The notes under the pieces are model-generated. The model ran no database searches, had not been told where the DNA came from, and saw only the letters and a list, made by a program, of their open reading frames with translations. A stretch of 64,000 bases of DNA from an uncultured Lachnospiraceae bacterium (GTDB taxonomy: Bacteria; Bacillota; Clostridia; Lachnospirales; Lachnospiraceae), in NCBI GenBank assembly GCA_934418125.1, contig CAKRWT010000002.1, positions 62,001 to 126,000 on the forward strand, read 5' to 3'. This document shows, one piece after another, positions 47,954 to 54,542 of the stretch. Every line of letters begins with the position of its first letter. The stretch's first letter is position 1. The translations under genes and the position numbers were made by a program.

Positions 47954-47982
47954 TTGTATTCTTTCGCAAGATACTTTATACT
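47954..47982 (+). promoter_or_regulatory. Candidate promoter of the PP2C-kinase-BMP-histidine kinase module
   Basis: TTGTAT (47954-47959), a 17-base spacer and TATACT (47977-47982). With the terminator just upstream, this suggests the module is an independent transcription unit. Confidence 0.6.
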
Positions 47983-47992
47983 GAATCTATCC

Positions 47993-48032
47993 GCTTCCAC
48001 TCTGGAAGCAAAAGTATCCGCGGGATTCCCGC
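47993..48032 (+). other. Two leader hairpins before the PP2C gene
   Basis: GCTTCC/GGAAGC (47993-48009) and GCGGG/CCCGC (48020-48032) would lie at the very start of the transcript from the promoter at 47954. Neither is followed by a T tract. A role in mRNA stability or control is inferred. Confidence 0.4.
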
Positions 48033-51003: not shown

Positions 51004-52093
51004 GGGAATATACCGGATGAGCTTAATCCTGCTGGCAGTTCTTATTGTAGGGATTATCATAGGACTGATTGTGGCAGGCGGCAGAAAAACAAAGCAACAG
51101 TCTGTAGTAGGAATTGTGATGTCGGGAAGTATGGAAGATACTGGCTGGAACAGTATACAGTATGAGGGACTGCGGGAAGCCTGCGATACGCTGGATGTCA
51201 GATTGCTTGTGAAAGAGAATGTAAAAGAATTTTCCGGACAGTGTAATAGTGCAGTGAGGGAACTGGTACAGGAAGGAGCCGGGATGATTATTCTGGCAAG
51301 CTATAATTATGCTGCAGAGGCAAAGGAGATTGTGGGAGAATATCCCCAAGTCAGCTTTTATGTGAATTCTTCGGAATATCATGATAAGAACATGACATCC
51401 TATTTCCTGCGTATTTACGAAGCCAGATATCTGGCAGGTATTGTAGCCGGTATGGAAACCCGGACGAATAAAGTAGGTTATGTGGCTGCTATGCCCAACA
51501 ACGAAGTTAACCGGGGAATGAATGCTTTTATGTTAGGGATGAAACGGGTTAATCCGGAAGCAGAATTGATTGTTGCCTGGTCTGGCAGCTGGGATGATGA
51601 GGCATCGGAAAGAAAACAGGCAGAAAATCTTATGGAAAAGATGGGAGTGGATGTACTGACATGCCATCAGAACCGTTCCTATGTGACAGAAGAAGCCCAA
51701 AAGGCTGGGATTATGGCGATTGGTTATCATGAAGCTCCAGCCCGAATAACGGATACTTATCTGACTACCGTAACCTATAGCTGGAAGCCGCTTTTTCAGG
51801 AACTGATTCGGGGGTACCAGCAGGGCAGGGGCAACGCCTGTGAGAACTACTGGCTGGGACTGGAAAAGGGAGTCATCGGTCTTGGAGAGTTTTCACCCAG
51901 AGTAGGGGAAGAAACAAAAGCACAGGTAGAGCAGGCAAAGCAGGAAATTTTGGCGGGCAAAGATGTTTTTTCCGGCGAGATTTATGATACAGAGGGGCAA
52001 ATCCGTTGTGAGGATAATGAGGCAATCAGTGATACTGTATTGTTGGAAGCAATGGACTGGTATGTGGAAGGTATAAGCTTTTATGAAGAATAG
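50990..52093 (+). CDS. Membrane-anchored BMP/Med-like solute-binding protein 2
   Basis: Paralogue of the preceding protein, alike throughout: GIVMSGSMEDTGWNSIQYEG matches its N-terminal motif, and both share EVNRG, the YFxRIYxxRYLxGIVAG pattern and ending DWYVEG. It starts at GTG 50990 after GAGGGAG, overlapping the previous gene by 14 bases. One membrane anchor (MSLILLAVLIVGIIIGLIVA), no lipobox, 367 residues. Probably a tandem duplication that has diverged; same unknown ligand class. Confidence 0.85.
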   Translation: MKKNEGIYRMSLILLAVLIVGIIIGLIVAGGRKTKQQSVVGIVMSGSMEDTGWNSIQYEGLREACDTLDVRLLVKENVKEFSGQCNSAVRELVQEGAGMIILASYNYAAEAKEIVGEYPQVSFYVNSSEYHDKNMTSYFLRIYEARYLAGIVAGMETRTNKVGYVAAMPNNEVNRGMNAFMLGMKRVNPEAELIVAWSGSWDDEASERKQAENLMEKMGVDVLTCHQNRSYVTEEAQKAGIMAIGYHEAPARITDTYLTTVTYSWKPLFQELIRGYQQGRGNACENYWLGLEKGVIGLGEFSPRVGEETKAQVEQAKQEILAGKDVFSGEIYDTEGQIRCEDNEAISDTVLLEAMDWYVEGISFYEE

Positions 52094-54542
52094 GGGAATG
52101 GGCAGAAAAAACAAGATTGGAATTGTTCTGCCGGCATTATGTGCGGTCATGGTTCTGGTAGGCTGCCTGATGTCTTATAAAATGAAGGCGCTTTTAAATG
52201 AATATATGGAAAAACAGGTAGCGCAGCAGGCAGAAATCATGGCACAGCTTTCCGAGGAAAAACGGAAGGAAGAGATAGAGGAACTTCAATATCTGGTCGA
52301 TTACCTGATAGAGGATATCATGGCAAAGGGCACTTTTCCAGGGGAAAAGGAAGGTGTTTCCATGGGGATTCTGACCTTGGATGGAAAGGCAGTCTGTGGA
52401 AAAGCCCTGGAACGGTCAAAGTATAGTGGAATTCAGGACTCTTTCCGGGGAAATGAGGCGGTATGCTATGACAAAGAAGGTGGACTGCTTTTTACGGTAC
52501 CGGTGTTTCATGGGGATAATGTGCGGTATGTGTTGTACCGGCTCTACCATCCGGATGTAGTGCTGGATTATTTCGGAATCAGTGGCTTCTCCGGAGAAGC
52601 GAAGACGCTGATAACCAACCGGGAGAACATTATTGTAAGATCCGAAAACTGGAGTGAAGAAGAGATGGCTATGCTGCAGACACCCCAGACGCAGGAAGCC
52701 TTTGAACTCATACAGGAACGATTGAATGTGTCTACGTCAGCAGCTTCCTACTGTAAGAACCAGGGGCGGGAGGATTTCCTTTTCCTGGCAGAAATCGGGG
52801 ATACCCACATGCTGCTGGTAGGTATGATAGAAGAAAATGTGGTAGCAGAGGGGATTTCCTACACGATACGGTTGGTGTTATGGGTGTTTGGATTATTGCT
52901 CATCCTGTTTCTTGTGGGCGTTATCTATCTGTTCAGTGCAGAGGAAAAAGTGAAGGAAAGTGATGAGCTGCGGGAGGCAAAAACCAGTGCCGAGAAGGCA
53001 AATCGTGCAAAAAGTGATTTTCTGGCGAACATGTCCCATGAAATCCGAACGCCTATCAACACGATCATGGGCATGAATGAGATGGTTATCCGGGAAACCG
53101 GGGAAGAGAAAGTAAGAGAGTATGCCCAGAACATAGAGAATGCCAGTAAGAATCTGCTGAATCTGATCAATGATATTCTGGATTTTTCCAAGATTGAATC
53201 CGGTAAGATGGAGCTTGTAAAGGCAGAATATCATGCCAGCATACTACTGAGTAATCTGGCAAATATGATAGGCGTTAAGGCAAACCAGAAGGGACTGGAT
53301 TTTCAGGTGGAGGTAGCACCGGATATCCCGGAACTTCTGTATGGTGATGAGGGCAGAGTCCGACAGATACTTGGTAATCTGTTAAACAATGCAGTAAAAT
53401 ATACGAAGCTGGGCAGTGTCAGATTTCTGGTAAGCTGGCAGCAGAGAGAAGAGACATCCTGTGGAACGCTTGTGGTTGCAGTGCAGGATACCGGTATTGG
53501 CATTAAGGAAGAGGATAAGAGTAAGCTGTTTCATGATTTTGAACGGCTGGATTTACAGAAAAATCGGAATGTGGAAGGAACAGGACTTGGACTTGCCATT
53601 ACCCATCGTCTGGTTACGAAGATGAAGGGGTATATGAAGATGGAGAGTGAGTATGGCAAAGGCTCTGTTTTTACCGTATACCTTCCACAGGAATACAGAA
53701 CCGAAGAAACAATAGGGGATTTCAAGCAAAAGTACGAAGATTTTCTTCACAGCAGGGAGCATTACCAGGAGAGCTTTACAGCACCCGGTGCAAGGATTTT
53801 GGTAGTGGATGACAACCAGATGAATCTTACAGTAGTGGAACGGCTGTTATGTAAGACAAAGATGCAGATTACGCTGTGTAGGAGTGGGGAGGAATGTCTT
53901 GCTGCAATCCGGAAGCAGCATTATGACGTGGTGCTGCTGGATCATATGATGCCGGATATGGACGGAATTGAGACGTTGCAGGAAGCACAGAAATTGTCGG
54001 ACAACCAATGCCGGGATACGCCTTTTATTGCATTAACGGCAAATGCTATTGTGGGAGCGAAGGAATTGTACCGGGAGTCTGGTTTTACCGATTATCTGAG
54101 TAAACCGGTAGACGTTGCCAGACTGGAGCAGATGCTTCGGAGTTATATTCCAAAGGAAAAGATTATCAGCCCAGGTAAAGAAGACAACGAACAGGGGGGC
54201 TGGCTTGATGTCAGTATTGGATTGTCTTATAGTAATGGGGATAAGCAATTATATCGGGAGTTTCTGGAGATTTATTGTGACCAAGGGGAAGCTGACCGGA
54301 TGAAACAGCACCTGGAAGAAAGTTATGTCCAGGAAAATTGGAAGAATTACAGTATCTATGCCCATTCTTTAAAATCCAATTCCAAAGGAATCGGGGCTGT
54401 CCGACTGGCAGAACTTGCTTATGCGATGGAACAGGCGGGGAAAAAGGGTGATGCGGAGCAGATTCGGGTAAATCATGAAGAACTGCTGCGCCAGTATGCC
54501 AATACCCTGAAAGCGGCGCGTGACTATTGGAAAGGGCTCTAG
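52083..54542 (+). CDS. Hybrid sensor histidine kinase with receiver and Hpt domains
   Basis: 819 residues. A membrane helix at about 14-32, an extracytoplasmic Cache-like sensor region (about 33-258) and a second helix (about 261-288). HisKA with the phosphorylated His319 (FLANMSHEIRTPINTIMG), HATPase with QILGNLLNNAVKYT, QDTGIGI and GTGLGLAI. A receiver domain with Asp620 (VVLLDHMMPDMDG), then a C-terminal Hpt with His761 (YAHSLKSNSKGIG). A complete His-Asp-His relay but no terminal response regulator next to it. It overlaps the second BMP gene by 11 bases, tying the kinase to those proteins. Confidence 0.92.
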   Translation: MKNRGMGRKNKIGIVLPALCAVMVLVGCLMSYKMKALLNEYMEKQVAQQAEIMAQLSEEKRKEEIEELQYLVDYLIEDIMAKGTFPGEKEGVSMGILTLDGKAVCGKALERSKYSGIQDSFRGNEAVCYDKEGGLLFTVPVFHGDNVRYVLYRLYHPDVVLDYFGISGFSGEAKTLITNRENIIVRSENWSEEEMAMLQTPQTQEAFELIQERLNVSTSAASYCKNQGREDFLFLAEIGDTHMLLVGMIEENVVAEGISYTIRLVLWVFGLLLILFLVGVIYLFSAEEKVKESDELREAKTSAEKANRAKSDFLANMSHEIRTPINTIMGMNEMVIRETGEEKVREYAQNIENASKNLLNLINDILDFSKIESGKMELVKAEYHASILLSNLANMIGVKANQKGLDFQVEVAPDIPELLYGDEGRVRQILGNLLNNAVKYTKLGSVRFLVSWQQREETSCGTLVVAVQDTGIGIKEEDKSKLFHDFERLDLQKNRNVEGTGLGLAITHRLVTKMKGYMKMESEYGKGSVFTVYLPQEYRTEETIGDFKQKYEDFLHSREHYQESFTAPGARILVVDDNQMNLTVVERLLCKTKMQITLCRSGEECLAAIRKQHYDVVLLDHMMPDMDGIETLQEAQKLSDNQCRDTPFIALTANAIVGAKELYRESGFTDYLSKPVDVARLEQMLRSYIPKEKIISPGKEDNEQGGWLDVSIGLSYSNGDKQLYREFLEIYCDQGEADRMKQHLEESYVQENWKNYSIYAHSLKSNSKGIGAVRLAELAYAMEQAGKKGDAEQIRVNHEELLRQYANTLKAARDYWKGL

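What the first reader, a model, noticed from the sequence alone, without database searches (positions are those of the whole stretch)
47954..54542. Five-gene signalling module: PP2C, non-RD Ser/Thr kinase, two anchored BMP/Med-like proteins, hybrid histidine kinase
The sequence shows five tightly packed genes (24- to 25-base gaps, then overlaps of 14 and 11 bases) behind their own promoter and after a terminator. They join two phosphorylation chemistries (Ser/Thr and His-Asp) to two extracytoplasmic ligand-binding proteins. BMP-family proteins normally serve a nucleoside ABC transporter, but none is here. I infer a sensor in which the two BMP proteins bind a ligand and pass the signal to the hybrid kinase, the Ser/Thr pair, or both. 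I know of no described system with this set.
Basis: partly seen in the sequence, partly recalled or inferred. Interest (0 to 1): 0.8.

Follow-up and report, generated by a model that had tools for sequence, protein, structure and literature searches.

The report
Membrane-anchored purine-type receptors with hybrid kinase
Two membrane-anchored relatives of nutrient-uptake proteins, probably purine receptors, sit beside a sensor kinase in many gut bacteria, a widespread and seemingly undescribed sensing unit; the protein phosphatase and kinase genes in front of them belong to a separate unit.

Summary
In detail: PP2C, soluble non-RD Ser/Thr kinase (STK), two membrane-anchored BMP proteins and a hybrid histidine kinase (HHK) lie at 48075-54542 with the stated gaps and overlaps. 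They are not a conserved five-gene module. PP2C-STK sits by rseP and/or ispG without BMPs in 11 of 12 loci fetched from relatives. BMP1-BMP2-HHK is a separate cassette (31 loci with BMP abutting HHK). In 13 held genomes with both parts they lie apart. The cassette is the real find. Its BMPs form two clades apart from ABC- and chemoreceptor-linked BMPs, almost all lack a lipobox, have no BMP-type permease in the fetched flanks (0 of 31) and share the pocket of the adenine-bound BMP 3s99. The HHK sensor models as tandem PAS/dCache. In 15 of 31 loci a GGDEF or HD_5 protein abuts the cassette. Best reading: a LuxPQ-like, two-receptor sensor of outside purines feeding a phosphorelay, often to c-di-GMP. 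Ligand, contacts and this genome's output are inferred. A new variant of a known kind.

The parts
46718..47893 (+). rseP (RIP metalloprotease), upstream flank of the slot
   Evidence: ORF; relatives of it upstream of PP2C in many relatives; gene name recalled, not from a family scan
47878..47905 (+). terminator-like hairpin after rseP
   Evidence: 12-pair stem plus T-rich tail
47954..47982 (+). weak promoter-like site TTGTAT-17-TATACT
   Evidence: read from sequence; 8 of 12 consensus bases, below the scan's threshold
48075..48833 (+). PP2C-type phosphatase, 252 aa
   Evidence: PF13672 2.6e-10; relatives beside STK in the rseP-ispG region
48858..49877 (+). soluble non-RD Ser/Thr kinase (YCD for HRD), 339 aa, no hydrophobic segment
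   Evidence: PF00069 1.1e-44; NCBIfam PASTA-kinase 205 bits against cut-off 450; hydropathy
49903..51003 (+). BMP1: membrane-anchored AtzT-like binding protein, 366 aa; pocket positions W51, S101, E169, W198, H223, N225
50990..52093 (+). BMP2: membrane-anchored paralogue of BMP1 (40% identical), same pocket positions
   Evidence: PF02608 4.9e-47
52083..54542 (+). hybrid histidine kinase, 819 aa
   Evidence: PF00512, PF02518, PF00072, PF01627
52176..52868 (+). HHK extracytoplasmic sensor, residues 32-262, tandem-PAS (dCache-like) fold
53007..53204 (+). HHK HisKA (SHEIRTP)
   Evidence: PF00512 residues 309-374
53796..54137 (+). HHK receiver domain
   Evidence: PF00072 residues 572-685
54288..54512 (+). 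HHK Hpt domain (AHSLKSNSKGIGA)
   Evidence: PF01627 residues 736-810
54601..55656 (+). ispG, downstream flank of the slot
   Evidence: ORF; relatives of it downstream of STK in many relatives; gene name recalled, not from a family scan

Best explanation
The locus is a composite of two independently conserved modules. (1) PP2C plus a Ser/Thr kinase, usually between rseP and ispG in relatives. (2) A BMP1-BMP2-HHK cassette that in this lineage has come to lie between that kinase and ispG. The cassette is a sensor: BMP1 and BMP2, held in the membrane by an uncleaved N-terminal helix, bind a purine base or close analogue outside the cell. Ligand-bound BMP contacts the tandem-PAS sensor of the HHK and changes its kinase/phosphatase balance. 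Phosphate runs His to Asp to Hpt-His and on to a response regulator. In many relatives that regulator makes or breaks c-di-GMP; here no regulator is adjacent, so it must be elsewhere. Shown here: gene order, domains, predicted folds, pocket conservation, absence of BMP-type permeases in the fetched flanks, phylogeny, neighbours. Inferred: ligand, BMP-HHK contact, direction of control, c-di-GMP output in this organism, and any link to PP2C-STK.
Against: Two of the 13 HHKs (G413, G419) have no BMP beside them and no signalling-type BMP in the genome, so the kinase may work, or decay, alone. A dCache sensor can bind ligands directly. Six of 31 cassettes have BMP1 only and four one BMP2-type only. 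The pocket is shared with transporter BMPs, so it speaks for ligand class, not for signalling. It is not identical to AtzT's: His replaces Asn218, Asp or Asn stands at 220, and Gly replaces Asn169; 3s99 has His, Asp and Gly there. A survey predicts sugars for almost all Bmp proteins of its strains (PMC9602780 passages). L147 has an ABC-ATPase-like protein abutting (53 bits) and L005 one 8.6 kb away. Flanks are uneven: 24 of 31 loci have at least 2 kb on both sides. Sixteen of 31 have no GGDEF or HD_5 protein abutting; the 15 that do include close relatives. One of 8 BMP control loci (L153) has a weak GGDEF hit (66 bits). The window's regulator is unknown.
Confidence: 0.65

Rival explanations
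1. One five-gene module: the BMPs signal to both the hybrid kinase and the PP2C/STK pair, which act together.
For: Tight packing with 24-25 nt gaps. Clusters P0002 and P0124 both report a longest contig of 3,526 bp, hinting at one related species with the same junction. A different, PAS-type hybrid kinase lies between rseP and PP2C in two other genomes (L131 scanned; L134 placed by similarity only).
Against: PP2C and BMP-HHK are apart in the 13 held genomes found with both. PP2C is in 56 of 60 genomes of a genus in which 11 have BMP1. Another gene fills the same gap in G120. The STK shows no membrane segment.
Confidence: 0.1
2. The BMPs are substrate-binding proteins of an unlinked ABC transporter, and their place beside the HHK only gives co-expression.
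For: They share the pocket of transporter BMPs and the fold of AtzT. A distant ABC transporter cannot be excluded because the window's genome is not held.
Against: Two separate clades, loss of lipobox, 0 of 31 with BMP-type permeases in the fetched flanks, and close, often overlapping gene order with the HHK.
Confidence: 0.1
3. The HHK senses its ligand directly through its dCache-like domain, and the BMPs only scavenge or buffer that ligand.
For: The sensor model matches dCache domains solved with their ligands, such as PctA and Mlp24. Two genomes keep the HHK without BMPs.
Against: No Pfam Cache family was reported in the window's HHK at E <= 0.001. LuxQ is a tandem-PDC kinase that takes its signal through a binding protein (PMC8534201 passages). 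A BMP abuts 11 of 13 such HHKs in the one unselected sample.
Confidence: 0.15

Closest known systems
LuxP-LuxQ (Vibrio)
   Same: Binding protein plus kinase with a tandem-PDC sensor; AI-2 is recognised through LuxP (PMC8534201 passages). LuxQ is hybrid (recalled).
   Different: LuxP binds AI-2, is soluble and belongs to another family (last two recalled); here two paralogous, membrane-anchored BMP proteins with a purine-type pocket.
TorT-TorS (E. coli)
   Same: Binding protein working with a hybrid kinase that has an Hpt-type relay (hybrid and relay recalled).
   Different: The TorS sensor is all-helical (PMC8534201 passages); here tandem-PAS. TorT is not a BMP protein (recalled).
AioX-AioS
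   Same: A signalling branch inside a family whose other members serve ABC transporters (PMC5908839 passages).
   Different: Structural homologue of PhnD, arsenite ligand, one binding protein.
AtzT and Brucella BMP 3s99
   Same: Fold and pocket; nearest solved structures to BMP1.
   Different: No histidine kinase partner is mentioned in the passages seen.
Med (comK activator, 2hqb)
   Same: BMP-fold protein named as a regulator, profile match 5.4e-39.
   Different: Lower Z (31.4); in the alignment the Glu165 and His positions are not kept; no HHK partner known to me (recalled).
dCache_1PU purine receptors
   Same: Purine sensing by membrane receptors, including one that modulates c-di-GMP (PMC11245519 passages).
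   Different: There the dCache domain itself binds the purine; here the binding proteins would.

Membership tests
Binding-protein-dependent histidine kinase system (LuxPQ/TorTS/AioXS kind) | Binding-protein gene coupled to a membrane histidine kinase gene | tested here: met
   Window overlap; within 120 nt in 31 chosen loci; 11 of 13 in an unselected genus sample
Binding-protein-dependent histidine kinase system (LuxPQ/TorTS/AioXS kind) | Kinase has an extracytoplasmic sensor domain | tested here: met
   Tandem-PAS model, pLDDT 88.3, between an N-terminal hydrophobic stretch (read from sequence) and one near residue 265
Binding-protein-dependent histidine kinase system (LuxPQ/TorTS/AioXS kind) | Binding protein contacts the sensor and ligand changes kinase activity | not testable with these tools
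   Needs biochemistry
BMP/PnrA family (PF02608) | Bmp profile and type I binding-protein fold | tested here: met
ABC-transporter substrate-binding lipoprotein | Lipobox | tested here: not met
   None in the window's two BMPs; 2 of 41 and 2 of 25 in the alignments
ABC-transporter substrate-binding lipoprotein | BMP-type permease beside it | tested here: not met
   No further gene between rseP and ispG; 0 of 31 relatives in the fetched flanks
Purine-nucleobase binding protein (AtzT/3s99 kind) | Aromatic sandwich plus Ser, Glu and Asn/Asp/His pocket | tested here: met
   As in 3s99; differs from AtzT at 169, 218 and in part 220
Purine-nucleobase binding protein (AtzT/3s99 kind) | Measured purine binding | not testable with these tools
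   Needs calorimetry
Stk1/PrkC PASTA kinase | Transmembrane segment and PASTA repeats | tested here: not met
   Matches profile positions 3-272 of 563 only, 205 bits against cut-off 450; no Pfam PASTA hit; no hydrophobic segment
Stp1/IreP PP2C phosphatase | NCBIfam equivalog cut-off | tested here: not met
   93 bits against cut-off 230; PP2C_2 in Pfam is met
dCache_1PU purine receptor | dCache_1 domain with purine motif | tested here: inconclusive
   Fold like dCache; no Pfam Cache hit at E <= 0.001; motif not tested

The most novel reading that the evidence does not exclude
A widespread, undescribed class of extracellular purine sensor in gut and rumen Lachnospiraceae and Selenomonadaceae: two paralogous membrane-tethered BMP receptors, kin of transporter lipoproteins but without lipobox or transporter, jointly gate a tandem-PAS hybrid kinase whose phosphorelay sets c-di-GMP; in this lineage it has been placed in the operon slot of a Ser/Thr kinase-phosphatase pair, possibly coupling the two.
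Probability: 0.35. Interest if true: 0.68.

Novelty: new variant of a known kind. Interest (0 to 1): 0.5.

Why it matters
One survey counts only about 10 characterised cases of a binding protein activating a sensor kinase (PMC9602780 passages). This would add a family, with a likely ligand class read from a conserved pocket and a likely output in c-di-GMP. It would offer a testable route from outside purines to motility or attachment in poorly studied gut bacteria. It also looks like a transporter binding protein turned dedicated receptor, with both states present in related genomes.

Tried and rejected
A five-gene unit: rejected as a conserved module. In 9 of the 13 genomes I saw STK next to PP2C; in G424, G425, G459 and G460 only the PP2C hit was listed. 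Different contigs in draft genomes do not measure distance, but no STK relative was seen in the 1.5-kb flanks of the eleven genus BMP loci. In L044 a 706-aa kinase relative (127 bits) lies about 6.3 kb before BMP1.

A structured RNA: no Rfam match at E <= 1 in 44500-57000. The palindrome at 48020-48032 was not pursued.

BMP-like regions inside 641-676 aa proteins (L136-L143) were looked at as possible BMP-kinase fusions. No HHK hit was seen on those loci and their other regions were not scanned, so they give no fusion evidence.

LuxQ is not among the 50 rows shown; by the tool's note this excludes nothing.

Literature: among the papers listed none describes a BMP-histidine-kinase system as far as title and abstract start show; one search matched 2,206 papers and listed 10; one search listed none. 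I read only passages of PMC6834077, PMC11245519, PMC9602780, PMC8534201 and PMC5908839; the rest were seen as listings.

Rows dropped before counts: the 31-locus set leaves out L013 (contig ends inside the BMPs), short or duplicate copies L014-L029 and L059-L063, and later loci (L176-L187, L207-L226, L242-L244), annotated only. Two of these, L242 and L243, also have an HD_5 protein abutting. Pocket counts used 41 BMP1 and 25 BMP2 chosen by me; of the 120 proteins listed (4,642 matched) 25 were used. Of the 33 genomes besides G001 matched, 19 were looked at.

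Full report
WHAT IS THERE. The five genes are present as described. BMP1 most likely starts at TTG 49903: its 85% relative P0002 begins there. The kinase has YCD in place of HRD, keeps DFG, and shows no hydrophobic segment. The PP2C has DGMGG, GDS and SDG motifs (read; motif meaning recalled). The HHK carries HisKA, HATPase, receiver and Hpt. The upstream terminator is good; the promoter-like site is only 8 of 12. The organism is unknown and its genome is not held; the nearest named BMP relatives are Lachnospiraceae MAGs.

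TWO MODULES, NOT ONE. In 397 genomes of the family of G001 (the genome of L001, titled Lachnospiraceae bacterium), at least 16 have BMP1 beside HHK (15 at E <= 6e-112, and G396 at 3.7e-88); G246 has a BMP2-type with HHK (L155). None of these 17 showed PP2C-STK next to it. The best PP2C relatives in the same sample led to 12 fetched loci. Eleven have PP2C-STK with rseP and/or ispG and no BMP; seven of these show both flanks (L124, L125, L128, L129, L131, L132, L134). In L127 and L130 no rseP relative was seen beside PP2C, and L126 and L133 run into contig ends. The twelfth (L135) shows neither flank. In a genus sample of 60, PP2C is in 56 and BMP1 in 11; all 11 also have PP2C, on other contigs or, in G007, about 138 kb away. 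Adding G281 and G370, the halves are apart in 13 of 13. G120 has a 729-aa ORF between STK and ispG (alpha-galactosidase by my reading of the sequence, not scanned). L131 and L134 have a hybrid kinase between rseP and PP2C. So the slot accepts cargo, and the window shows the cassette as cargo. A hint that the junction is older than one strain: P0002 (BMP1, 85%) and P0124 (STK, 70%) both report a longest contig of 3,526 bp; that it is one contig is an inference.

THE CASSETTE. BMP lies within 120 nt of HHK in the 31 loci kept; 21 have both BMPs, six BMP1 only, four one BMP2-type only. The 31 were chosen because both hits were seen, so the unselected figure is the genus sample: 11 of 13 HHKs with this sensor have a BMP beside them. 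Selenomonas ruminantium S137 alone has three cassettes (L011, L144, L145). In the family of G011 (that strain's genome) 30 of 81 genomes have a BMP at E <= 1e-60, and 17 of the 20 annotated loci L207-L226 show a BMP with HHK sequence (flanks about 1.5 kb). In contrast, in a class-wide sample 34 of 291 genomes match at E <= 1e-70; of the 33 besides G001 I looked at 19 (L188-L206), and all 19 have a relative of the BMP-transporter ATPase beside the BMP.

BMP PHYLOGENY AND ANCHOR. A maximum-likelihood tree of 94 BMPs puts 34 signalling BMP1 in one clade (98/96), 31 signalling BMP2 in one clade (100/100) and 29 ABC- or chemoreceptor-linked BMPs apart (100/100) (midpoint root for drawing only; long branches flagged, and the ABC and chemoreceptor groups are mixed). 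With one lipobox pattern over 45 residues: BMP1 2 of 41, BMP2 2 of 25, ABC-linked 20 of 23, chemoreceptor-linked 6 of 6.

OUTPUT. Pfam scans of neighbours found REC-GGDEF (L004, L049, L053, L054, L056, L057), REC-HD_5 (L010, L144), HD_5-REC with or without dCache (L003, L006, L051), REC-HD_5-GGDEF (L048), kinase-type proteins ending in HD_5 (L001, L044), a GGDEF-EAL protein (L045), and REC-only or REC-Hpt proteins (L001, L002, L005, L045, L055, L058). HD_5 as an HD-GYP-type domain is recalled. By a uniform count, GGDEF or HD_5 proteins are 15 of 48 abutting same-strand ORFs and 1 of 251 other ORFs on those loci (Fisher p = 2e-12; ORFs of 100 aa or more picked mechanically), in 15 of 31 loci; L045 is not in that count. 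Several distinct architectures argue for repeated association, but related loci are not independent, so the p-value is too small. PP2C-STK loci had 0 of 12 and BMP control loci 1 of 8 with any GGDEF or HD_5 hit. The window has no such neighbour.

MECHANISM. Most likely: outside purine, BMP1/BMP2, HHK tandem-PAS sensor, His-Asp-His relay, then a regulator, often one that sets c-di-GMP. Only parts, predicted folds, pocket and neighbourhoods are shown. The link to PP2C-STK is unsupported beyond adjacency.

NOVELTY. Works like LuxPQ/TorTS/AioXS; the receptor family, the doubled membrane-tethered receptors and the c-di-GMP neighbourhood differ. The listings showed no paper on such a system; the library holds open-licence papers only.

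Noticed in passing
L131:4364-6601, L134:8750-10972: A hybrid histidine kinase lies between rseP and PP2C in two other genomes (PAS type in L131), a second kind of meeting of a hybrid kinase with the PP2C-STK pair.
   Followed up: partly
soluble: L129, L132, L156-L163, L165-L171, L173; membrane-spanning: L124-L128, L130, L131, L134, L164, L172, L174, L175: The kinase beside PP2C comes in two builds by hydropathy: soluble, often with a basic tail (FIR..EK..WL), and with a strong hydrophobic segment; the residue at the HRD arginine varies (R, Q, C, G, L).
   Followed up: partly
L148, L149, L151, L152: BMP lipoproteins sit beside mutually similar proteins of 563-571 aa that look like chemoreceptors (my reading, no Pfam scan), suggesting BMP-fed chemotaxis.
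   Followed up: no
L136-L143: A BMP-like region lies inside 641-676 aa proteins in 7 of 13 genomes; in 7 of these 8 loci a conserved protein of about 200 aa (MKIL.I.D.) is next to it.
   Followed up: no
L240 (G413), L241 (G419): The HHK with this sensor occurs without a BMP gene while the downstream genes are as in cassettes that have one.
   Followed up: partly
L130:8662-10851: A 729-aa ORF, alpha-galactosidase-like by eye, lies between STK and ispG.
   Followed up: no
P0125 against window 49006-49275 (- strand): A database protein joins an antisense reading of this STK gene to its C-terminal half, perhaps an inversion or assembly artefact.
   Followed up: no
window 48020-48032: Near-perfect palindrome GCGGGATTCCCGC in the leader before PP2C, possible operator.
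   Followed up: no
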